Source of the DNA: CAVSKL01 sp963728475 [NCBI: Candidatus Eiseniibacteriota bacterium]
GTDB lineage: Bacteria; Eisenbacteria; RBG-16-71-46; JABDJR01
Direction of reading: 5' to 3'
Length of the DNA stretch: 64,000 nucleotides
NCBI GenBank assembly: GCA_963728475.1
Contig: CAVSKL010000001.1
Location: forward strand, 1,860,001 to 1,924,000
Below the pieces are notes generated by a model, which saw nothing but the letters and a program-made list of their open reading frames with translations, was not told the origin of the DNA and did not search any database. Positions 24,224 through 37,490 of this stretch are shown piece after piece (position 1 is the first letter of the stretch; each line of letters opens with the position of its first letter). Made by a program: the position numbers and the translations under genes.

Positions 24224-24282
24224 CCCCCTCCGCCGGATTCTCGCCTACCCCATAACCGGTTGCCGGGAAGCAAGTTGGATCC

Positions 24283-24298
24283 GGGCACGCTCCATGCT
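24283..24298 (+). promoter_or_regulatory. sigma-54 (-24/-12) promoter of the cytochrome operon
   Basis: GGGCACG-CTCC-ATGCT compares with the consensus TGGCACG-N4-TTGCA/T. The invariant GG (24284-24285) and GC (24296-24297) are exactly 10 nt apart. Transcription would start near 24309, which is downstream of the far GTG/ATG-type starts and supports ATG 24347 for the first gene. Confidence 0.7.
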
Positions 24299-24346
24299 CT
24301 TTATACCTCCGGTGATCCCTGCGGGAAGGGTGAAGGAGTTCGTGCG

Positions 24347-24790
24347 ATGCCGGAGATGTTGGCCAATCGCTACTTCCGATCCGGTCGCTTCGGGGAGGCG
24401 GCGATGATCTACGAAGGGGTGCTGCGCAGGTACCCCGGCCACCTCCCGGCCCGCAAGAAACTCGTGGTGTCGTACGTGGCGCTCGGCCGGCTCCGCGAGG
24501 CGCTGGAGCTGGCCCTGGGGCTCCTCGACGAGGGGCTCGAGGTGCTGGCGGTGTCCGACCCCGAGACCGAGGGTTTCCCGTGTGGGGACGTGCAGAGCGT
24601 GCTCCGGGGGACCGAGCCGATGCTCCCCCCCGGGGTTCGCCATACCAGCCTGGCGCTCCTCCAGCTCTTCTGCCGGCCGGAGGAAGCGCTCCGGGAGCTG
24701 GATCTCGCGGTCAACGCGGAACCGGTGATTCCGGACGCTCCCAGGCTGCGATCGGCGCTCAAACGTCATCTGGAGGCTCGACATGTCTAG
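24347..24790 (+). CDS. TPR-like small protein, first gene of the cytochrome operon
   Basis: 147 residues from ATG 24347, with GAAGGAG 8 nt upstream and the predicted sigma-54 transcript starting 38 nt before it. It has two to three tetratricopeptide-type helical hairpins: 'ANRYFRSGRFGEAAMIYEGVL', 'LVVSYVALGRLREALELALGL' and a C-terminal 'LFCRPEEALRELDLAV'. No signal peptide, so it is cytoplasmic. A 'GFPCGD' loop and an 'LFC' carry its only cysteines. TPR proteins mediate protein contacts; a role in maturing or regulating the cytochrome is inference. It overlaps the cytochrome start by 8 nt. Confidence 0.75.
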   Translation: MPEMLANRYFRSGRFGEAAMIYEGVLRRYPGHLPARKKLVVSYVALGRLREALELALGLLDEGLEVLAVSDPETEGFPCGDVQSVLRGTEPMLPPGVRHTSLALLQLFCRPEEALRELDLAVNAEPVIPDAPRLRSALKRHLEARHV

Positions 24791-26126
24791 GTTTCGATTG
24801 ATCTGGCTGGCGGCGGCGGCGGCGATCCTGGTCGTCCTCGCGGCCGCCGGGTGCGGCGGTTCCGGCGGGAACGATCCCGGAAAGCCGGTCGCCCTGAGCG
24901 GGACCTGCACCGGCTGCCATACCGACGCCGAAATGCTCCAGGCCACCGCGCTTCCCGACCCGCCGCCCGCCGAGGGCGACGCGGGCGAGGGGTGAGGCGG
25001 GTCGGTCCCTCCGTTGGAGGGCTGGCAAAAGGTCCTGATCGCGGGAACGGGGGCCGACGCGTTCTTCGCCTCGGACCACGGCAAGGCCGACTGCACCGAC
25101 TGCCACCGGGGCAAGAACGGGAATCTGACCAAGGACGAGGCTCACCTGGGCCTGGTGGCGAGGCCGAGCGCCGAGCCCCAGCAGTACTGCGCCGGGTGTC
25201 ATCCCATCGACGTTCAGCGGCACCTGGGGGGGCTCCACGCCAACCTGTGGGGGGAGAAGAACGTGGTGGCGGCGCGCCACGGGGTCGCCGACTTCTCGCT
25301 CCTTCCCGCGTCGGTACTGGCCGGCTACGAGGCCAACTGCAACAGCTGCCACACCTCCTGCGGCGACTGCCACGTGGGGCGGCCGGCATCGGTGGGCGGA
25401 GGGCTGGTGGCGGGCCACCGCTTCGGCGCTCCCGACATGACCGAGAACTGCACCGCCTGCCACGGGAGCCGGGTCGGGGCCGAGTATCTGGGCCAGAACG
25501 CCGGGTATCCCGCGGACGTCCATTACCTTCCGGGGGGCATGCGCTGCGATTCCTGCCACGACCGGATGGAGATGCACGGCGCCGGCGGGGTCCCCAAGGA
25601 ACGGCTGTCGTCGTGGTATCAGACCACCTGCGGGGATTGCCACGGGGGCGAGGCCGCGGCCAACCCCTACCACGTCCGGCACTGGGGGGACCTCTCCTGT
25701 GAGACGTGCCACAGCCTGGACTACAAGTCCTGCAACTCGTGCCACGCCGGGACCGGCCTCGCCGAACCCTCGTACATGAGCTTCAAGATCGGGCGGAACC
25801 CGGCCCCGGACCGGCGGCCCTACCGGTTCGTGACCCTGCGCCACATTCCCATTGCCCCCGACACCTATGCCGCGTGGGGAACGGGGACCCTGGCGAACTT
25901 CGGCGTCGCGCCGACCTGGAGGTACGCGGCGCCTCACAACATCCAGCGGTGGACGGACCGCACCCGCGTCCCCGAGGGGGGAACCTGCTTCACCGCCTGT
26001 CACGAGAGCCCCGACGGGCCGGAGGGGATCTTCCTCCGGCAGTCGGACCTGGATTCCATGAGCCCGGCGGAGGCCGAGGCGAATCGCGACCTGATCGTTC
26101 CGAACGGGTCGCCGGTCAACTGGTAA
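24783..26126 (+). CDS. multihaem c-type cytochrome lipoprotein with probable selenocysteine at an in-frame TGA (codon 71)
   Basis: 447 codons in one frame, interrupted only by TGA at 24993-24995. Residues 1-25 are a lipoprotein signal (hydrophobic core, 'LAAAGC' lipobox). Haem sites in order: CTGCH before the TGA; then CTDCH, CAGCH, CNSCH, CGDCH, CTACH, CDSCH, CGDCH, CETCH, CNSCH and a last CFTACH (CX3CH), giving eleven. The TGA context is GEG-U-GG. Reading through is favoured because the long second part has ten haem sites yet no signal peptide or Shine-Dalgarno of its own, and a SECIS-like hairpin follows the TGA. It would be an outer-surface or periplasmic electron carrier or reductase. 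The alternative is a nonsense mutation or sequencing error. Confidence 0.75.
24993..25026 (+). promoter_or_regulatory. UGA codon plus SECIS-like hairpin
   Basis: TGA (24993-24995) is followed by GTCGG (25001-25005), a lone T (25006), CCCTCC (25007-25012), loop GTT, GGAGGG (25016-25021) and CTGGC (25022-25026). That is an 11-bp stem (two G-U pairs) with one bulged U and GU in the loop. Counting the U of UGA as 1, the bulge is base 14 and the loop GU is 21-22; in E. coli fdhF the SelB contacts are U17, G23 and U24. Confidence 0.65.
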
Positions 26127-26139
26127 GGAGGAACAACCG

Positions 26140-27150
26140 ATGAGACGGTTCCTGGCACTGTGGATCGTTCTGGCGGTGGCCCTGTCCGCCGCTCCGGCCC
26201 TGGTGGGCTGCGGCGGCAGCGACAACGGCACCAACCCCGGCGTCAGCGAGTATTCGCTCGTGGCCGCGGTGGGGGACGCCTACTTCGGCACCTACACCAC
26301 CGCCAGCGGGGCGACCCTGACCCCGGCCGCGGACGCGGTCTATGCCAACCTGGTGGACGGCAACACCGCCAACGACTACACCATCCTCGACTGGCGGAGC
26401 GCCGCCGAATTCGCCAAGGGGCACATCGCCGGCGCCCGGAACGTGGCCCTGGCCGACTTCGGCACGGTCATGGACGGGCTCCCCGCCGGGCACGCGGTGC
26501 TCAACGTGTGCTACACCGGGCAGACCGCGGGCTACGTGACCTCGATCATGAACATGCTGGGCACCGAGGCCCAGAGCCTGCGCTACGGGATGTGCGGCTG
26601 GACCACCGACGCCAACATCACCGGCTCCCGCTGGGAGAACGGGATGAGCAACAACTACGCGGACTGGCTCTCCACCACCGCCACCGTCTCCACCCAGACC
26701 TACTCGCCGCCCACGCTCGCCACCGGAGAGAAGACGGGGAAGGCCGTCCTGCGTGCCCGCGCCGACGCCGGCGCCGCCGCCGGGTGGAAGACGATCAGCG
26801 CCTCGACACTCTACGCCGACTTCACCGCCGGCCACGCCGGGGACTACTTCGTGATCTGCTACCAGGCCGACGCCAACTACAACGGCGGCCACGTCCCCGG
26901 CGCGGTGCACTTCGTGCCCAAGCAGGACCTGGCCTCGGCCAAGCTCCTCAACACCATCCCCACCGACAAGAAGGTGGTGGTGTACTGCTACACCGGGCAG
27001 AGCTCCGCCCAGGTGGTGGCGTACCTGAACATGCTCGGCTACAACGCGTACTCGCTGACCTACGGGGTGAACTCGCTTTGCTCCGAGAACGCCACCGTGT
27101 GCAACGTGAAGTTCACGCCGCCCACCAACAGCTATCCGGTGGTGCAGTAG
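26140..27150 (+). CDS. tandem-rhodanese lipoprotein
   Basis: 336 residues, 13 nt after the cytochrome with AAGGAGG before the ATG. Lipoprotein signal ending 'ALVGCGGSDN'. Two rhodanese-like domains: the first (about 65-165) has 'ILDWRSAAEFAKGHIAGARN' and active loop 'CYTGQT'; the second (about 215-325) has 'NGGHVPGAVHF' and 'CYTGQS'. Each loop holds a potential sulfur- or selenium-carrying Cys. Catalytic Cys in both domains is less common than one active plus one inactive domain. In the periplasm or on the outer membrane it could bind sulfane sulfur or selenium species used or made by the cytochrome; this is inference from the operon. Confidence 0.9.
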   Translation: MRRFLALWIVLAVALSAAPALVGCGGSDNGTNPGVSEYSLVAAVGDAYFGTYTTASGATLTPAADAVYANLVDGNTANDYTILDWRSAAEFAKGHIAGARNVALADFGTVMDGLPAGHAVLNVCYTGQTAGYVTSIMNMLGTEAQSLRYGMCGWTTDANITGSRWENGMSNNYADWLSTTATVSTQTYSPPTLATGEKTGKAVLRARADAGAAAGWKTISASTLYADFTAGHAGDYFVICYQADANYNGGHVPGAVHFVPKQDLASAKLLNTIPTDKKVVVYCYTGQSSAQVVAYLNMLGYNAYSLTYGVNSLCSENATVCNVKFTPPTNSYPVVQ

Positions 27151-27361: not shown

Positions 27362-27958
27362 CTAGGAGGGCTGCCGCAAGGCCCCGAGGACGGCCTGGCG
27401 GCCCTTGAGGAAGCCCCTGATGTTGATCTCCAGCGCCTTGGTCGGGACCCGCTTCTCGATGCCGCTGGTGAGGACGTCCTCATCCAGGTCCAGCTCCACC
27501 GAGAGCGCCCCCAGCATGACCACGTTGACGATCTTGACGTTCCCCAGCTCCTCGGCGATCCGGTGGGCGGGGACCATCACCACCCGGCCCGCGCGGCGGC
27601 GGAGCAGCGGCTCCACCTCCTGGGGGTAGGGCGCCTTGCCCCAGATGAGCATGGAGGGGTCGATCCGCTGGTCGTTGACCAGCGCGACGCCCCCCGGCTT
27701 CAGGTACTCCAGGTGGCGCACCGCCTCCAGGCGTTCGAGGGCGAAGAGCACGTCGGCGGCGCCGAGCCGGATGAGGGGGGAGAAGATCCCGGCGCCGTAG
27801 CGGATCTGGCAGGTGACGCTCCCGCCCCGCTGCGACATGCCGTGGACCTCGCTCTTGCGGACCGAGCGGCCCGATAGGAGCGCGGCCTCGGCCACCACCT
27901 CGCCCGCCAGCAGGATCCCCTGCCCCCCCACTCCGGCCATGAAGATGCTGGTGTTCAT
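27362..27958 (-). CDS. iorB: indolepyruvate ferredoxin oxidoreductase, beta subunit
   Basis: 198 residues from ATG 27958. It has the gamma-type domain of 2-oxoacid:ferredoxin oxidoreductases: 'IFMAGVGGQGILLAGEVVAEAA' and 'SEVHGMSQRGGSVTCQIRYG', with the latter motif typical of IorB. With the alpha subunit it oxidatively decarboxylates aryl pyruvates made from aromatic amino acids, giving aryl-acetyl-CoA and low-potential electrons, in the cytoplasm. Its ATG overlaps the stop of the alpha gene by 4 nt, so the subunits are co-translated. Confidence 0.92.
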   Translation of the reverse strand: MNTSIFMAGVGGQGILLAGEVVAEAALLSGRSVRKSEVHGMSQRGGSVTCQIRYGAGIFSPLIRLGAADVLFALERLEAVRHLEYLKPGGVALVNDQRIDPSMLIWGKAPYPQEVEPLLRRRAGRVVMVPAHRIAEELGNVKIVNVVMLGALSVELDLDEDVLTSGIEKRVPTKALEINIRGFLKGRQAVLGALRQPS

Positions 27959-30912
27959 CGGCTCTTCCCCTCGAGATAGGCCCGGATGGCGCCGGCGGCC
28001 TTCCGTCCGGAGCGGACGGCGTGGGCCACGGTGCCGAAGCCGGTGGCGAGGTCGCCGCCGGCGAATACCCCGGCGAGGCCGGTTTCGGTGGAGAAGTCGG
28101 TGACCACCTTGCGCCCGTCGTTGCGCAGCGACTCGGGAAGGTCGCTGAAGCCGGCCCGTTCGCCCACCGCCGCCACCACCTGGTCGAACTCCTCGACGGT
28201 CTCGGAGCCGGGGACCGGCACCGGGCGCCGGCGGCCGCTGGCGTCCGGGGCGCCGGGCTGCATGCGGGTGAAGGTGACCTGGAGCCGGCCCCCACGCAGG
28301 ACGATGGCCACCGGAGCGGTGTGCGGCACCACCGGGATGCCCTCGGCCACCAGGTCGGCCACGTCCTCGGGGATGGCGGGCATGTCGGCCACGCTCCGCC
28401 GGTAGGCCACGGTGGGGGCGGCGCCCCGGCGCTTCACCGAACGGGCCACGTCCACCGCGGTATTGCCTCCTCCCACCACCAGCACGTGCTTGCCGATCTC
28501 GGTCTTCACCCCCAGGTTCAGATCCCGCAGGAGTTCCACCCCGTGGACCACTCCGGGCAGGTCCTCCCCGGGGATACCCAGGGGGGCGGTCTCGGAGAAG
28601 CCGGTGGCGAGGAAGATCGCGTCGTGGTCGCGGTCGAGAGCGTCGAAGCCGATCTCGCGGCCCACCCTGGCCTCGGTCCGGAACTCGATCCCCGCGGCCC
28701 GCATCCGGTCCAGCGTCCGGTCGAGGACCTCGCGGGGCAGCCGGAAGTCGGGGATGCCCGCCCGGAGCATGCCCCCGATCTCGGGAAGCTGCTCGAACAC
28801 GGTCACCCGGTATCCCTCCCGGGCCAGGTACCAGGCCGCGGTGAGGCCGCCGGGGCCGCTCCCCACCACCGCCACGCGCTCCTCGCGAGGCTCCGCCGGC
28901 GCGGGGACGGCGGCGTGCTCCAGGCCCCAATCCCCCAGGAACCGTTCCACCGAGCGGATGGAGACCCGGCCCGGCTTTCCGTTGCCGAACTTCGCGCCGA
29001 GGGCGGCGAACCGGGCGTCCACCACCCCTCCCAGGCCGTAGCCGAGGGCGTTGACCTCGGTCTCGCAGGGGTGGGGGCAGACGCGGCCGGTCACCGAGGG
29101 GAAGGGGTTGGTCTTGAGCAGCAGCTCGTAGGCCTCGGCGTAACGCTTCTCCAGCGCCAGCTCCAGGAACCCGGGCACGTCGTTGGCCGCGGGGCAGTCG
29201 TAGCACACCTGCTGGCACATGCTGCAGCCGTTACAGACCTCGGGGTCGATCGCCGGCACGTCGTCGGCGAAGCCCACCGCCGGGCAACCGATGGAAAGGC
29301 ACGCCTCGCAGTGGACGCAGACGGCGGCGTCCACCTCCACCGGGGGGGCGAACACCGTCTTCTCGTTCAGCACGCACCCGTTCTGGACCACGATCACCGA
29401 CGTTTCGTCCGCCTCCAGTTCTTCGCGGACCGCCTTCTCCAGCCCGAGAAGATCGTAGGCGTCGGCGGTGCGGACCCGGCGCACCCCCACCGCCCGGGCC
29501 AGGCCGGGGATGTCGAGCCGGGGCGCGTCCTCGCCGCTCAGGCGCTTGCCGGTGGCGGGATGGGGCTGGTGCCCGGTCATGGCGGTGGTGCGGTTGTCGA
29601 GGACCAGCAGGGTCTGGGCGCCGCCGTTATAGACCGCGTCCACCAGCCCGGTGATGCCGGAGTGGACGAAGGTGGAGTCTCCGATCACCCCCACCACCCG
29701 CCGCCGGTCGGCCTCGGGGAGCGCCCGGGCCAGCCCCGAGGCCATGCCCACGCTCGCCCCCATGCAGAGGCAGGAATCCATGGCGTTGAGCGGGCTCAGC
29801 GCCCCCAGGGTGTAGCAGCCGATGTCGCCGGCCACGATCAGGTCCAGCCGCCGGAGCACGGTGAACACCCCGCGATGGCCGCAGCCGGGGCAGAGCACCG
29901 GCGGCCGGGGGGGGAGCTGCACGTCGATCACCGGCGCCCGGGGGGGGGCGTCCCCGCCCAGGGCCATGGCGGCCACCAGGTCCGGATCGAGTTCGCCGGT
30001 GTCGGGGCGGAGTTCCCGCCCGGTCACCTCGATGCCCATGGCCCGGAGCTGCTCTTCCAGGAACGGGTCCAGCTCCTCCACCACGATCACCCGGTCCACC
30101 GAGGCCGCGAACTCGCGGATCAGGCTCTCGGGGAGGGGATTGGTGAGGCCGAGCTTCAGGTGCGAGGCCTCGGGAAACGCTTCCATGGCGTAGAGCCAGG
30201 CCGCGCCGCTCGATACCACCCCCAGGTCGGAGCGGCGGTGGCGCAGCACGTTCAGGCGGCGCATGGAGGAGGCGTCCACCTTGAGCCGGCGCATCCGGTC
30301 CTCCACCGCGCGATGGCGCCCGCGGGCGTTGGCGGGGAGGAGCACGTACTTGGCGGGGTTCCGGTGGAAGGTCCGCCGGGGCGGAGTCCGGGGCTCGCCC
30401 AGATCCACCTCGCCCTCGGCGTGGCAGACCCGGGTGGTGAGCCGGAGCATGACCGGGCTGTCGTAGGCCTCGGAGAGCTCGAAAGCGAGGCGGGTGAATT
30501 CCTTGGCCTCGTCGCTGGTCGAGGGCTCCAGCATGGGAATCTTGGCCGCCCGCGCCAGCCACCGGTTGTCCTGCTCGTTCTGCGAGGAGTGCATGCCGGG
30601 GTCGTCGGCGGAGACCACCACCAGGCCTCCGTTGACGCCCATGTAGGCGTGGCTGAACAGCGGGTCGGCGGCCACGTTCACTCCCACGTGCTTCATGGTC
30701 ACCAGGGCGCGGGCGCCGCCCAGGCAGGCCCCCACCGCGGACTCGTAGGCCACCTTCTCGTTGGGGGCCCAGCGCGCCTCCACCCCGGGGTAGTCGCGGA
30801 AGGATTCGAGGATCTCGGTGGACGGGGTGCCGGGGTAGCCGGCGGCGAAGGTGACGCCGCACTCGTACGCCCCCCGGGCCACCGCCTCGTTGCCGGACAA
30901 AAGCTTTTTCAT
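27955..30912 (-). CDS. iorA: indolepyruvate ferredoxin oxidoreductase alpha subunit fused to a GltD-like NAD(P)/FAD module
   Basis: 985 residues; ordinary IorA has about 600-640. Residues 1-540 are IorA: 'GYPGTPSTEILESF' at the N terminus, 'CPGCGHRG' near 342 and 'GDIGCYTLG' and 'GDSTFVHSG' for thiamine diphosphate binding. Two ferredoxin motifs follow ('CVHCEACLSIGCP', 'CNGCSMCQQVCYDCP'). From about 600 the sequence becomes a glutamate-synthase small-subunit-like flavoprotein: 'NPFPSVTGRVCPHPCE', FAD-binding 'VVGSGPGGLTAAWYLA', NAD(P)-binding 'VVGGGNTAVDVARS' and terminal 'VFAGGDLATG'. The fusion could pass electrons between the iron-sulfur clusters and NAD(P)H. It is followed by iorB with a 4-nt overlap. 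Confidence 0.92.
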   Translation of the reverse strand: MKKLLSGNEAVARGAYECGVTFAAGYPGTPSTEILESFRDYPGVEARWAPNEKVAYESAVGACLGGARALVTMKHVGVNVAADPLFSHAYMGVNGGLVVVSADDPGMHSSQNEQDNRWLARAAKIPMLEPSTSDEAKEFTRLAFELSEAYDSPVMLRLTTRVCHAEGEVDLGEPRTPPRRTFHRNPAKYVLLPANARGRHRAVEDRMRRLKVDASSMRRLNVLRHRRSDLGVVSSGAAWLYAMEAFPEASHLKLGLTNPLPESLIREFAASVDRVIVVEELDPFLEEQLRAMGIEVTGRELRPDTGELDPDLVAAMALGGDAPPRAPVIDVQLPPRPPVLCPGCGHRGVFTVLRRLDLIVAGDIGCYTLGALSPLNAMDSCLCMGASVGMASGLARALPEADRRRVVGVIGDSTFVHSGITGLVDAVYNGGAQTLLVLDNRTTAMTGHQPHPATGKRLSGEDAPRLDIPGLARAVGVRRVRTADAYDLLGLEKAVREELEADETSVIVVQNGCVLNEKTVFAPPVEVDAAVCVHCEACLSIGCPAVGFADDVPAIDPEVCNGCSMCQQVCYDCPAANDVPGFLELALEKRYAEAYELLLKTNPFPSVTGRVCPHPCETEVNALGYGLGGVVDARFAALGAKFGNGKPGRVSIRSVERFLGDWGLEHAAVPAPAEPREERVAVVGSGPGGLTAAWYLAREGYRVTVFEQLPEIGGMLRAGIPDFRLPREVLDRTLDRMRAAGIEFRTEARVGREIGFDALDRDHDAIFLATGFSETAPLGIPGEDLPGVVHGVELLRDLNLGVKTEIGKHVLVVGGGNTAVDVARSVKRRGAAPTVAYRRSVADMPAIPEDVADLVAEGIPVVPHTAPVAIVLRGGRLQVTFTRMQPGAPDASGRRRPVPVPGSETVEEFDQVVAAVGERAGFSDLPESLRNDGRKVVTDFSTETGLAGVFAGGDLATGFGTVAHAVRSGRKAAGAIRAYLEGKSR

Positions 30913-32729: not shown

Positions 32730-35700
32730 GTGAGCCTACCCGAACCCTCCCCGGAAGACCGCCTGGCCCGCCTGCGGGAAGGAGCGTCCGAAGCGGAGGC
32801 GGCGCGGGCGGCGGAGGACCTGAACGCGCTCCTCGCCCCCGGACCCGGGGACCCCGGGGAGGCGGCGGAAGAGGCGCTGGAGTTCGTGGCCGACGGCCGG
32901 CTGGACGAGGCGGTGGCGCGGGGCCTCGGGCTGGACGCGCTGGCCGCGCTCGGCGAACGCTGGGCGGGCTCCCTGGAACGGGCGGAATCGGAGGAGGCGC
33001 GGGCGGCGCTGGCCCCGCGGGCGTGGATCTGGCTCGACGCGGTGCGCCGCCCGGCGGTGCTGAAGCGGATCGCGCAGGAGAACGCCGCCGAGCGATGGAT
33101 GGCGCTCATTCTCCGGCTGATCGACGCCTCCGGCTTCACCCTGGCCCGGCTCTTCCGGCAGCGGGTGGAGGACTACGGCCCGCGCACCCTCTTCCGGCTC
33201 ACCGCCGGCGGTCGCGAGGTGAGCCACACCTGGCTCGCGGTGTCGAGCCAGGTCGACCTCATCGCCCGCGGCCTGCTCGCCCTGGGCGAGGAGGCCGGTC
33301 CGGGCCCGGTGGCGATCCTCTCCGAAAACCGGATCGAGGCCGCCCTCACCGACCTGGCCTGCCTGACCTCGGGCATCGTGAACGTGCTGGTGCCCGCCAC
33401 CGCCACCGACGTGGACATCGCCTTCATCCTGGAGCAGACCGGAGCCTCGGTGCTGGTGGTGTCCGGCGAACGGGAGCTGGCGAAGGTGGAGCGTCACCGT
33501 TCGCGCCTCTCCCGGCTCGCGAGGGTGGTGACCTTCGATCGTCCTCCCGCCGCCTCCGGCGCCCTCTCCCTGTCCGAGGTCGCGGCGCGGGGGCGGGGGG
33601 TGGACCGGGACCGGCTGGAGCGGGCGCGGGACGCCGTCGATCTCCGGGGGGTGGCCACCCTCATGTACACCTCGGGCACCACCGGGAAGCCCAAGGGGAT
33701 CCGCTTTTCCCAGAGGAACCTGGTGGCCAAGCGGTTCGCGCGGGCGCTCGCGCTTCCCGGAATCGGCGACCAGGACGTCTTCCTGGCCTACCTCCCCCTC
33801 TACCATACCTTCGGAAGGTACCTGGAACTCTGGGCCTGCGTGTTCTGGGGGGCGGTCTACACCTTCCAGACCGATCCCTCGCTGGAATCGCTGATCGAAG
33901 GGATGGGCCGGGCCCGGCCCACCGTGTTCATCAGCGTGCCCAAGAAATGGATGGAACTCTGGGAGGAGATCGGCCGCCGCGCCGACCTGGAGGACGACCC
34001 CGACGACGTTCTGCAGGCGGCGGCCCGGGCGGTGGTGGGGGAGCGGCTCCGGTGGGGGGTCTCCGCCGCGGGGTACCTCCCCCCCGAGATCTTCCGGTTC
34101 TTCGCCGCGCGGGGAGTGGAGCTGGTGAGCGGGTTCGGCATGACCGAGGCCACCGGCGGCATCACCATGACCCCGCCCGGAGGCTACCGTGACGAGAGCC
34201 TCGGGCTGCCGCTGCCGGGGATCGAGGTGCGCCTGGAGCCCGACGGCGAGATGGTGATCCGGGGGGCCTACGTGATGCTGGGTTACCAGGGGGCGCCGGA
34301 CCGGGAGAGCTTGGACGCCGCGGGCTGGTTCCATACCGGCGATCTCATGGAGCGGGACGAGGAGGGGCACTACCGGCTCGTCGACCGCAAGAAGGAGATC
34401 TACAAGAACATCAAGGGGGAGTCGGTGGCCCCCCAGCGGGTGGAAAACCTGTTCCGGGACTTCGAGGCGGTGCGGCGGGTGTTCCTGGTCGGCGATCACA
34501 AGCCCTACAACACCGTCCTCTTCGTGCCCAACCTGGAGCACACCGAGCCGGACTTGGCCGCCATGAGCGAGCGGGAGCGCCGCGATTACTTCCGCTCGCT
34601 GGTGGTCTCGGTGAACCGCTTCCTGGCTCCCTACGAGCGCGTGGTGGACTTCGCCGTGCTCGACCGCGACTTCTCGGAGGAGCGGGACGAGCTCACCCCC
34701 AAGGGGACCTATCGCCGGAAGACGGTGGCGCGGAACTTCGCTCCGGTCATCGACACCCTCTACCGGCGGGTGCGGCTCAGGAGCGAAGGTCTCCGCGCCG
34801 AGATTCACGTTCCCAACTGGCTCTTCCAGGCCCTCGGCCTGACCGCGGGGGACGTGCGGCTCGAGGGGGGCCGCATCACCTTCGCCTCCACCGGGACCTC
34901 GCTCACCGTGGAGTCGCTCGGAACCGACGGCGAGGCGGAGGAGGTGCGGATCGGCTCCTCCCGGTACCGGGTGGAGGGGCGGGTGCTCGACCTGGGGACG
35001 CTGGCGGCCTCGCCTCCGCTGTGGCTGGGAAACGAGGAGCTGGTGCAGTTCGCGCCCCTCGAGCGGGCGCTTCGCATCCGGCGCGCCCGCCCTCCGCGGG
35101 ACGTGACCCTCCTGGGGCGGGCGGTACCCTATCACCCCACCGAGGACGAGCTGGGCGCGCTCCGCCACACCCTGGTCGAGCCCGGCCCGGACCTGGACGA
35201 CCTGGACCTGGCCGCCCGCACCCTCGCCTCGCCCGATCCCGAGCACGGGCTCCTGGCGCTCTCGGTCATGGCGCGCGCGCTCCGGAGCGAGGAGGGGATC
35301 CTGCTCGAGACCGCGCTTCTGGGGCTCCGGGGAGCGGGGGGAAACCCCTCGATCGCCATCCGGCGCCGCGCGTTCGAGATCCTGCTCCCCGCCGAGCGCG
35401 ACCATCAGACCCCGGCCACCCTGGAACGATTCCTGGCCGGCCCGGATCTCCTCCTCGACGCCCGCACCATCGTCCGCCTCTGCGACGAGGGGTTGAGCGC
35501 GCCCAAGGTCGAGGCCCTGGTGCGCCATGCGCGCGCGGCGGCCGAGGCCGCGGCCTCGGACGGGGACCCCGGCGTGCCGGGGGCGGCGTCGCTGTTGCGG
35601 CTCCTGGCCGGGTACGGGGCGGGGCATCCCGCGGCGTTCGAGCCGCTCCGGGCCGCCCTGGCCCGGACCCGGGTGTTCGCTCCCGCCTCCCGGGTGCGGG

Positions 35701-37490
35701 CGGAGGCGGAGTCGTCCCTGGCGCGGCTGACCGAGGGGTTCCGGTCGTGGCTGGGACCGGTGCGGCCGATCGCGGTGGATCCCGACGAGGGGAACGAGTA
35801 CCGGTGGGACGACGTGATCGGCTTCGAAGACGAGGTGCCCGGGCCCGACCGGGAGCGGATCCTGGCCGCGGTCTCCACCACCGGGCTCCTGCGCGAGGCG
35901 GTCTACCTCTTCTCCGGCGAGGCTCTTCTCCAGCTCTCCGACATCCCCCGGGGAGGGATCTGGGTGAGCCTGCTGGGGGCGCGGCACGGGAAGTCGGTGT
36001 ACCGGCTGAGCGTGCACACCCGGCGGCAGGGGTCGTACGATCTCGCCTTGAACCTCAACGACGGGCTGAGCCGCGAGGACGTGCTCTCGGAGATCCGCTG
36101 GCTCATGATCACCGGGGGCGATGACGGGCGGGGCCCCCTGGTGGAGAAGTTCGGCGGCTGGTGGCCGGAGTTCGACCTCTGGACCGAGGAGTTCATCGCG
36201 GGCGAGACCCTGGACCGGGTGGTGCAGCGGCTGGTGCAGCGGCGGACCGAGGACACGGTGGACCGGGTGGCGCTCCTCTGGCCCTTCTTCGTCTACAGCG
36301 CGGCGGGGGCGTTCCTGGAGTTCTGGAACCGCACCGGGCGCACCCGGGTCCTGGCCGATCCCTCGGCCGGGGACGTGATCGTCCCCACCCACGACTACCA
36401 GACCGGAACCCGCATCGTCTCCATCGCCCGCCGCCGGCCCGCGGGAGGGATCGGCGAGCTCCTGGACGAGCTGTGGAACCACCTGGCGGCGCCGGTGGAG
36501 GAGCGCCACCCGCCGCTCGCCGGGATCGCGTCCGCCGGGGACGTGCTCACCGCATTTCTGGAGACGGCGGGGGTGAAGGCGGGGGCCGCCCTTCTGGCCG
36601 GGGCCGCGGGCCGGGGGCCGGTGTCCGCGCACATCGTCCCCTACCTGGCCTCGGTGGAGGCGAACGGGTTCGTGCCCCGGCGGTTGCGCTCCGCCGTCGA
36701 CCGTTACCATCGCTGGGCCGCGCTCGCTCCCGACGCTCCCGCGCCGGCCCGCGCCCAGACCGTGCAGGAGCTGTTCGAGACCTACCGCCTTGGGGATCTC
36801 CTCCGTGAGCACCCCGACACCCGGGTGCGCTTCTTCCGCGAGACCGTCTTCCGCGATGCCCCCGCCGCCGTGGCCGGGGGGCTGGACGCGGTGATCGGGA
36901 CCCTGCGCCGGCGTTCGCTGGGGTCCGACGAGCTGGTGGACCGGCTGGCCGGGCTCCGCGTGCACCTCGAAAGCGGCTCCGACCAGGAGTACTTCCTCAC
37001 CCGGCTCACCTACCCCCATCTCCGCCCCGGCGACGAGGCGGGGTTCTTGTCCACCGAACTCGGCGGAGTGCGCCAGACCGACATCGTGGTCTCGCTCGAG
37101 GACAACACCGGCCGTCCGTACCAGGTGCGCCAGCCGGTGAATCCCAGGGAAGTGGGCCGGCTCCACCGGCTCTTCCTCGCCGCCCGGCTCGACGTGAGCT
37201 TCCGTCCCGAGCACCAGTTCCTGGTCGCGGTGAGCGAGCGGGGAAGCCTGATCGGCGGCGTGTTCTACGAGATCGACGGCGAGAGCCGCTCCGCCCATCT
37301 GGAGAAGATCGTGGTGGCCGAGCGCTACCGGAAGCTCGGGGTGGGGGAAGGGCTCATGAACGAGTTCTTCAACCGGCTCCGCGCGGCGGGGGCGGAGCAG
37401 GTCACCACCGGCTTCTTCCGGCCCAGCTACTTCTACCGGTTCGGGTTCACGGTGGGCAAGCGGCAGGCCGGCCTGGTGAAGACGTTGTAG
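32730..37490 (+). CDS. giant multidomain protein: AMP-forming ligase, helical repeats, kinase-like region, GNAT acetyltransferase
   Basis: 1586 residues from GTG 32730 (GGAAAGGA upstream). Residues about 1-120 are helical. An acyl/aryl-CoA synthetase-type domain fills about 130-700: 'YTSGTTGKPKG' (313-323), 'GFGMTEATGG' (468-477), 'HTGDL' (about 535) and 'DRKKEIYKNIKGE'. About 790-1040 is rich in HEAT-like helices. About 1085-1240 has a kinase-like look ('GKSVYRLSVHTR', 'LWTEEFIAGETLDRVV', 'LADPSAGDVIV') but no certain catalytic triad. The last 110 residues are a GNAT domain with the acetyl-CoA loop 'YRKLGVGEGLM'. Together they could activate an acid and modify a protein or amine, possibly linked to regulation; the role is unknown. 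Confidence 0.8.
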   Translation: MSLPEPSPEDRLARLREGASEAEAARAAEDLNALLAPGPGDPGEAAEEALEFVADGRLDEAVARGLGLDALAALGERWAGSLERAESEEARAALAPRAWIWLDAVRRPAVLKRIAQENAAERWMALILRLIDASGFTLARLFRQRVEDYGPRTLFRLTAGGREVSHTWLAVSSQVDLIARGLLALGEEAGPGPVAILSENRIEAALTDLACLTSGIVNVLVPATATDVDIAFILEQTGASVLVVSGERELAKVERHRSRLSRLARVVTFDRPPAASGALSLSEVAARGRGVDRDRLERARDAVDLRGVATLMYTSGTTGKPKGIRFSQRNLVAKRFARALALPGIGDQDVFLAYLPLYHTFGRYLELWACVFWGAVYTFQTDPSLESLIEGMGRARPTVFISVPKKWMELWEEIGRRADLEDDPDDVLQAAARAVVGERLRWGVSAAGYLPPEIFRFFAARGVELVSGFGMTEATGGITMTPPGGYRDESLGLPLPGIEVRLEPDGEMVIRGAYVMLGYQGAPDRESLDAAGWFHTGDLMERDEEGHYRLVDRKKEIYKNIKGESVAPQRVENLFRDFEAVRRVFLVGDHKPYNTVLFVPNLEHTEPDLAAMSERERRDYFRSLVVSVNRFLAPYERVVDFAVLDRDFSEERDELTPKGTYRRKTVARNFAPVIDTLYRRVRLRSEGLRAEIHVPNWLFQALGLTAGDVRLEGGRITFASTGTSLTVESLGTDGEAEEVRIGSSRYRVEGRVLDLGTLAASPPLWLGNEELVQFAPLERALRIRRARPPRDVTLLGRAVPYHPTEDELGALRHTLVEPGPDLDDLDLAARTLASPDPEHGLLALSVMARALRSEEGILLETALLGLRGAGGNPSIAIRRRAFEILLPAERDHQTPATLERFLAGPDLLLDARTIVRLCDEGLSAPKVEALVRHARAAAEAAASDGDPGVPGAASLLRLLAGYGAGHPAAFEPLRAALARTRVFAPASRVRAEAESSLARLTEGFRSWLGPVRPIAVDPDEGNEYRWDDVIGFEDEVPGPDRERILAAVSTTGLLREAVYLFSGEALLQLSDIPRGGIWVSLLGARHGKSVYRLSVHTRRQGSYDLALNLNDGLSREDVLSEIRWLMITGGDDGRGPLVEKFGGWWPEFDLWTEEFIAGETLDRVVQRLVQRRTEDTVDRVALLWPFFVYSAAGAFLEFWNRTGRTRVLADPSAGDVIVPTHDYQTGTRIVSIARRRPAGGIGELLDELWNHLAAPVEERHPPLAGIASAGDVLTAFLETAGVKAGAALLAGAAGRGPVSAHIVPYLASVEANGFVPRRLRSAVDRYHRWAALAPDAPAPARAQTVQELFETYRLGDLLREHPDTRVRFFRETVFRDAPAAVAGGLDAVIGTLRRRSLGSDELVDRLAGLRVHLESGSDQEYFLTRLTYPHLRPGDEAGFLSTELGGVRQTDIVVSLEDNTGRPYQVRQPVNPREVGRLHRLFLAARLDVSFRPEHQFLVAVSERGSLIGGVFYEIDGESRSAHLEKIVVAERYRKLGVGEGLMNEFFNRLRAAGAEQVTTGFFRPSYFYRFGFTVGKRQAGLVKTL

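What the first reader, a model, noticed from the sequence alone, without database searches (positions are those of the whole stretch)
24783..26126. Eleven-haem lipoprotein cytochrome with an in-frame TGA, probably selenocysteine
One frame runs 447 codons with a single TGA at codon 71. Before the TGA are the lipoprotein signal and one CXXCH; after it are ten more haem motifs with no export signal, no good start codon and no Shine-Dalgarno. Haem attachment needs export, so the second part makes sense only if joined to the first. The codon lies in GEG-U-GG, close after haem 1, where it could be a redox or haem-ligand residue. If right, standard annotation would split this gene and lose a selenoprotein cytochrome.
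Basis: partly seen in the sequence, partly recalled or inferred. Interest (0 to 1): 0.92.

Follow-up and report, generated by a model that had tools for sequence, protein, structure and literature searches.

The report
Selenium-containing eleven-haem cytochrome beside rhodanese
The stop-like codon inside this cytochrome gene almost certainly codes for the selenium amino acid selenocysteine, because relatives in many uncultured bacteria keep it at the same place with an RNA hairpin behind it and a sulfur-transfer (rhodanese) gene next door; it looks like an unlisted selenoprotein family tied to sulfur or selenium electron chemistry.

Summary
In detail: one frame, 24783-26126, 447 codons, one TGA at codon 71 (24993-24995); lipobox and haem 1 before it, ten haem motifs after it (9 CXXCH + 1 CX3CH). 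Of 53 aligned homologues from two phylum-level groups, 43 have TGA in this column, 1 Cys, 9 other residues. A hairpin just behind the TGA is kept by compensatory changes (47 double-changed cells; score 0.504, against 0.08-0.18 when slid), and synonymous change there is about halved: a SECIS. SelB or tRNA-Sec is found in 38 of 40 genomes with the TGA form; the window's own genome is not held. A tandem-rhodanese lipoprotein gene adjoins 41 of 43 TGA copies (the other two are cut by contig ends) and 3 of 10 non-Sec copies. In one clade the pair stands in a gene row with an outer-membrane barrel, more multihaem cytochromes and a cytochrome b, like Geobacter's ext cluster, but the cytochrome does not match ExtKL. 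No NCBIfam cut-off was reached, and a 2026 table of 119 selenoprotein families lacks it. The Sec's task is inferred.

The parts
24783..26126 (+). Sec-containing eleven-haem c-type cytochrome lipoprotein, one CDS read through TGA
24772..24776 (+). GGAGG, ribosome-binding-like, 6 nt before the ATG; the start overlaps the end of the upstream TPR ORF (24260-24790)
   Evidence: sequence
24852..24854 (+). lipobox Cys24 codon
   Evidence: invariant in 47 of 47 rows of A3
24993..24995 (+). TGA codon 71, read as selenocysteine
   Evidence: TGA in this column in 43 of 53 homologues, Cys in 1
25007..25021 (+). SECIS-like hairpin: 6-bp stem CCCUCC/GGAGGG, loop GUU, 11 nt after the TGA
   Evidence: covariation; single fold (z -2.2)
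26140..27150 (+). tandem-rhodanese lipoprotein (PF00581, two stretches; CYTGQ loops), 13 nt between the cytochrome stop and its ATG, GGAGGA at 26127-26132

Best explanation
The gene is a selenoprotein: SelB, guided by the hairpin just behind the UGA, inserts selenocysteine at residue 71, and the whole 447-residue chain is exported as a lipoprotein and loaded with up to eleven haems c. Shown here: conserved frame, conserved UGA, covarying hairpin, Sec machinery in relatives, near-constant rhodanese neighbour. Inferred: the Sec sits on a flexible, often Gly-rich tether between haem 1 and the other haems and acts as a redox nucleophile that exchanges sulfane sulfur (or selenium) with the persulfides of the tandem rhodanese, electrons passing along the haems to or from the membrane (turnover of polysulfide, thiosulfate or tetrathionate, or of selenite/tellurite). 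The confidence given is for the selenoprotein reading; for the sulfur-transfer task alone I would say about 0.4.
For: TGA in the same column in 43 of 53 aligned homologues, down to 35% identity with the window protein, Cys in one. Hairpin: 86% of cells paired, 47 double-changed cells, score 0.504, each of these three reached by 0 of 500 shuffles; slid controls pair 34-52%. pS 0.30 in the 15 alignment columns after the TGA against 0.54-0.58 elsewhere. SelB in 32 of 35 and 4 of 5 TGA-bearing genomes, tRNA-Sec in 33 of 40, either in 38 of 40; the tRNA-Sec gene lies about 0.8 kb from the cytochrome in G155 and 1.7 kb in G160. Rhodanese neighbour in 41 of 43 Sec rows (L015 and L073 end at contig edges), 3 of 10 non-Sec; the rhodanese Cys is kept in 43 of 43 rows with domain 1 and 42 of 42 with domain 2. 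Gene row with a 22-strand barrel, multihaem cytochromes and a cytochrome b domain. Residues 96-447 align with octahaem cytochrome 1sp3, Z 8.1 (recalled: tetrathionate reductase); profile search of solved chains: MccA, E 5.3e-6 (recalled: sulfite reductase). Eleven motif His but ten other conserved His, so one haem may lack a His partner.
Against: No protein-level evidence of selenium. Window genome not held. Only 1 of 10 non-Sec homologues has Cys; nine have unrelated residues. SelB is also common (135 of 210) in genomes of the same phylum without a TGA copy (p 6e-4), and in the smaller phylum 4 of 5 against 33 of 42 shows no association; tRNA-Sec is also in 6 of 6 genomes that hold only non-Sec copies. 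Two of the five covariation measures do not beat shuffles clearly (38 and 109 of 500); RNAalifold returned no structure; single folds are only mildly better than shuffles (z -1.0 to -2.2 for four Sec sequences); Rfam has no match. Z 8.1 is near the usual background, from 10 chains only, and Foldseek found nothing at E 0.001. No substrate is shown; Sec and rhodanese change together in 3-4 of 5 independent switches, never opposite, which is not significant.
Confidence: 0.9

Rival explanations
1. Selenoprotein, but its task is selenite/tellurite reduction or general extracellular electron transfer, as discussed for Geobacter extHIJKLMNOPQS, not sulfane-sulfur chemistry.
For: Parallel gene content: rhodanese lipoprotein, outer-membrane barrel, Sec cytochrome, further cytochromes, cytochrome b; weak ExtM similarity in 16 of 47 members, best E 2.3e-9, and ExtN/ExtO models in 2; a MerR regulator beside it in 17 of 24 loci.
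Against: No ExtKL match; no ext-named model for the L080 barrel at E 0.001 or the two rhodaneses tested at E 10, though I did not check that NCBIfam has models for ExtH and ExtI; around the window gene and L001 no other cytochrome gene was seen beside the pair.
Confidence: 0.35
2. TGA is read by another route: stop-codon reassignment (Trp or Gly) or unprogrammed readthrough.
For: TGA is flanked by Gly codons, as if it replaced Gly.
Against: Exactly one in-frame TGA in 42 of the 43 rows (a second one in L049, at residue 3, depends on the start codon chosen); seven family rows end in TGA; covarying hairpin and Sec machinery.
Confidence: 0.03
3. Pseudogene, sequencing error, or two separate proteins.
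For: Standard annotation would split it; a TTG start exists at 25014.
Against: Same TGA in 43 copies, 42 of them from 40 other genomes; pN/pS about 0.25 on both sides; the second part has no export signal but needs export for its haems.
Confidence: 0.02

Closest known systems
ExtKL, predicted Sec multihaem cytochrome of Geobacter (NF040886; GSU2937-2936)
   Same: Multihaem c-type cytochrome split in annotation by an in-frame TGA thought to be Sec; in a cluster with a rhodanese lipoprotein, an outer-membrane barrel, more cytochromes and a cytochrome b (passages of PMC5877670 and PMC6148476).
   Different: Five haems, with the TGA after the cytochrome part; here eleven haem motifs with the TGA between the first and the second. 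No profile match.
Octahaem tetrathionate reductase family (TIGR04315; PDB 1sp3)
   Same: Possible shared fold of residues 96-447 (Z 8.1, 258 aligned, rmsd 4.4); a Sec member is listed as GenBank-annotated in Table 1 of PMC13188914.
   Different: 17.6 bits against a cut-off of 375; eleven motifs, an extra N-terminal Sec segment, lipoprotein.
ExtM of the selenite/tellurite cluster (NF040943)
   Same: Weak matches in 16 of 47 members, in the haem 2-3 region and in the middle of the protein.
   Different: At most 36 bits in the tables seen, cut-off 800; ExtM is not in the review's table of selenoproteins.

Membership tests
Bacterial selenoprotein | In-frame TGA conserved across divergent homologues | tested here: met
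   43 of 53
Bacterial selenoprotein | Cys in the same column in non-Sec homologues | tested here: inconclusive
   1 of 10 non-Sec rows Cys, 9 other residues
Bacterial selenoprotein | SECIS hairpin directly downstream, G in the apical loop (loop rule recalled) | tested here: met
   covariation in 42 of the 43 Sec rows; loop begins with an invariant G, column 21
Bacterial selenoprotein | SelB / tRNA-Sec in the same genome | tested here: inconclusive
   38 of 40 relatives' genomes have one or both; the window's own genome is not held
Bacterial selenoprotein | Selenium in the protein | not testable with these tools
   needs mass spectrometry or selenium labelling
ExtKL (NF040886) | Profile match over 250 bits | tested here: not met
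   P0001: no match at E up to 10; in 34 genomes 0 over the cut-off, and none of the 26 places listed is the Sec cytochrome
Octahaem tetrathionate reductase (TIGR04315) | Profile match over 375 bits | tested here: not met
   17.6 bits
Octahaem tetrathionate reductase (TIGR04315) | Shared fold | tested here: inconclusive
   1sp3 Z 8.1 by VIA-align among 10 chains; Foldseek no match at E 0.001
ExtM (NF040943) | Profile match over 800 bits | tested here: not met
   14.7 bits for P0001; 16 of 47 members weak matches
Rhodanese (neighbour gene) | PF00581 domain with catalytic Cys | tested here: met
   82.4 bits, two stretches; Cys in both loops

The most novel reading that the evidence does not exclude
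A selenoenzyme wired to a haem chain: the Sec on its flexible arm carries a selenenyl-sulfide (or perselenide) from the tandem rhodanese to the one haem that lacks a conserved second His, making a reductase or oxidase of sulfane sulfur or of selenium oxyanions at the outer membrane; Geobacter's ExtH/ExtKL would be a separate arrival at the same logic.
Probability: 0.25. Interest if true: 0.9.

Novelty: new variant of a known kind. Interest (0 to 1): 0.74.

Why it matters
It adds a selenoprotein family that curated models and a 2026 census lack, with the TGA form in 35 of 245 searched genomes of one phylum (that of the Neomarinimicrobiota genome G002) and 5 of 47 of another. It shows a blind spot: the deep-Sep method keeps a candidate only with a known Sec homologue or with at least two Cys homologues among the top ten hits (passage of PMC12013277), and here 1 of 53 rows has Cys. 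A Sec cytochrome tied to a tandem rhodanese, in a cytochrome family without a profile match to ExtKL, makes it testable whether selenium joins sulfur-transfer chemistry to haem wires outside the cytoplasm.

Tried and rejected
Own-genome searches and 'relatives' gave nothing because no genome is held for the window; relatives were used instead. Plasmids and viral contigs: no match. Other phyla: 0 of 295 (phylum of L004, a Nitrospirae MAG) and 0 of 398 (phylum of L005, a gammaproteobacterial MAG) at E 1e-30; these are samples, and the tool warns that an empty answer without a known positive shows little.

RNAalifold on A2 predicted no structure (run together); the 6-bp stem had been picked from the single-sequence folds and the column counts on the same sequences, so it is tested against shuffles and slides but not on fresh sequences. 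Rfam: no match. Foldseek PDB for the cytochrome: nothing at E 0.001.

Rows left out: seven partial matches and nine partial or weak ones (one of these, G076:C109, looks like a C-terminal fragment of the family) were not taken; L054 (does not reach the position), L074 and L075 (cut by contig ends) were dropped before the count of 53. L068 is Sec but out of register and is not in the hairpin count (42 of 43 used). A3 holds 47 of the 53 rows (L033, L036, L049, L053, L072, L073 left out as near-copies or for odd ends). The pN/pS test used 16 pairs of the 40 Sec rows kept, chosen by whole-gene pS 0.35-0.62. Some non-Sec flanks are short (L065, L070, L072), so 'no rhodanese' is weaker there.

Gly/Trp reassignment, pseudogene and split-gene readings were rejected for the reasons under rivals. 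Literature: among the rows listed (1 of 1; 25 of 86; 2 of 2; 5 of 5; 15 of 66; 20 of 54) I recognised no paper on this family, exact phrases, found 0 papers. Seven papers were opened, passages only (PMC13188914 also section 7, parts 1 and 2 of 3); the others were seen as listings.

Full report
Observation. The frame 24783-26126 holds 447 codons, one TGA at codon 71 and a TAA end. A GGAGG lies 6 nt before the ATG. The protein starts with a lipoprotein signal, has one CXXCH before the TGA and nine CXXCH plus one CX3CH after it. No genome is held for the window, so the question was put to relatives.

Homologues. A genome-contig scan returned 8 loci, of which three look like family members along most of their length: L001 (60%), L002 (37%) and L003 (34%). 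L001 and L003 have TGA at the aligned codon, L002 has TGC. A profile of these and the window protein found full-length members in 5 of 47 genomes of L001's phylum, each with exactly one TGA inside, and matches in 45 of 245 genomes of L002's phylum. I collected the window and 55 loci, dropped three that do not hold the position (L054, L074, L075), and aligned 53: TGA 43, Cys 1, other residues 9 (H, D, R, A, S, Y, A, A, A). The 43 TGA rows are the window and 42 copies from 40 genomes. A tree of 49 rows, built without the Sec region, needs 6 changes between Sec and non-Sec, at least 5 on starred branches; the Cys form (L026) sits among Sec forms.

RNA element. Counting the U of UGA as 1, columns 15-20 pair with 24-29 around a GUU loop. 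In 42 Sec sequences (41 distinct; L068 left out as out of register) 86.2% of cells pair, 47 cells are double-changed and the covariation score is 0.504; 0 of 500 shuffles reach any of these three, and slid versions score 0.079-0.182. Two other measures are not special: 5 pairs with double changes (38 of 500 shuffles reach it) and 11 further pair types (109 of 500). In the sequences residues change in step with the stem, e.g. VPPLE, VVPLE, AVPLV, AVPLA, LEPLA. Synonymous divergence is 0.30 in the 15 columns after the TGA against 0.54-0.58 elsewhere in 16 pairs; pN/pS is 0.22-0.29 throughout. Against this: four Sec sequences fold only mildly better than shuffles, z -1.0 to -2.2, RNAalifold gave nothing, Rfam has no match. 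In ten non-Sec rows the same columns pair poorly in the middle of the stem, e.g. 3 of 10 at columns 18/26 against 40 of 42.

Machinery. tRNA-Sec with anticodon TCA is in the genomes of L001, L002 and L003. At E 1e-60, SelB is in 32 of 35 TGA-bearing and 135 of 210 other genomes of L002's phylum (p 6e-4), and in 4 of 5 and 33 of 42 in L001's phylum (not significant). tRNA-Sec is in 33 of the 40 TGA-bearing genomes, but also in 6 of the 6 tested genomes that hold only non-Sec forms. Two of the 40, G005 and G084, show neither. In G155 the tRNA-Sec gene lies about 0.8 kb upstream of the cytochrome, in G160 about 1.7 kb (by the Rfam model only).

Neighbourhood. The next gene in the window, 26140-27150, is a lipoprotein with two rhodanese stretches. 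A homologue adjoins the Sec cytochrome in 41 of 43 Sec rows (38 downstream, 3 upstream); the other two, L015 and L073, end at contig edges on the downstream side and show none upstream. It adjoins 3 of 10 non-Sec homologues: the Cys one, whose rhodanese ORF is cut to one domain (142 aa), and two paralogues next to a Sec copy. The catalytic Cys is present in 43 of 43 rows with domain 1 and 42 of 42 with domain 2. In 24 longer loci (window, L001-L003 and 20 stretches that I chose, two of them non-Sec; the window's own genes were lost in that call's ORF picking) the rhodanese cluster occurs in 21 and a MerR-family regulator in 17; in one clade follow a barrel-like protein (8 loci), a cytochrome with 11 or 12 CXXCH (10 loci), smaller cytochromes, and a multihaem protein with a cytochrome b domain; a second clade has other multihaem genes. 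The barrel-like protein models with 22 strands and matches outer-membrane ushers and porins. That these rows are operons is inferred from gene order. In the window this is the only reading frame with two or more CXXCH.

Fold and haems. The model (mean pLDDT 80.7) has pLDDT under 50 at 25-32 and 65-70, the latter next to the Sec. Residues 96-447 align to the octahaem cytochrome 1sp3, Z 8.1, rmsd 4.4, 258 residues, among 10 chains compared; such a Z can be background, and Foldseek alone found nothing at E 0.001. A profile search of solved chains gave MccA at E 5.3e-6, a hypothetical multihaem protein at 3.4e-4 and a nitrite reductase at 0.0032. Eleven motif His and ten other His are conserved at 96% or more of 47 rows, so one haem probably lacks a His partner; which one, and whether Sec or a substrate takes the place, is unknown.

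Known relatives. ExtKL of Geobacter is a predicted Sec cytochrome in a cluster with rhodanese, porin and cytochromes; loss of the porin ExtI impairs selenite and tellurite reduction (passages). Our proteins do not match its profile, nor do they reach TIGR04315 (17.6 of 375 bits) or ExtM (best 36 bits of 800). For the 13 family cytochromes whose NCBIfam tables I saw no model reached its cut-off; over 47 members the best E was 2.3e-9. I read parts 1 and 2 of 3 of section 7 of the 2026 review PMC13188914, which hold its table of 119 families: two multihaem cytochromes are there, ExtKL and the octahaem one, plus a CXXCH-containing barrel family (GSU2204); none is described as this family. By gene content the row works like the ext cluster; by profile the cytochrome is not ExtKL.

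Mechanism. Shown: selenoprotein gene signature and rhodanese partnership. Inferred: Sec on a flexible arm trades sulfane sulfur or selenium with the rhodanese while haems carry electrons. Sulfur against selenium substrates cannot be decided here.

Noticed in passing
window 27955-30912 (-): 985-aa ORF joins POR_N/TPP domains (indolepyruvate:ferredoxin oxidoreductase alpha-like, recalled) to a Fer4_20/Pyr_redox_2 part; a possibly unusual fusion.
   Followed up: no
window 32730-37490 (+): 1586-aa ORF with an AMP-binding N-terminus, about 800 residues without a Pfam match at E 0.001, and a C-terminal GNAT acetyltransferase.
   Followed up: no
L081 7256-7349; G160:C88:7812-7903: tRNA-Sec gene lies near the Sec cytochrome in two genomes.
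   Followed up: partly
L080 8377-8829, L003 9435-9905: A MerR-family regulator stands before the Sec cytochrome in 17 of 24 loci; the two translated have a Cys-rich tail.
   Followed up: partly
L002 11593-12021: The only Cys form of the cytochrome is followed by a rhodanese ORF of one domain (142 aa), as if the system were decaying.
   Followed up: partly
L095 9199-13449 (G291); L043 and L071 (G292:C6): A Sec copy and a non-Sec paralogue stand on either side of one rhodanese gene; the G292 paralogue has 7 CXXCH.
   Followed up: no
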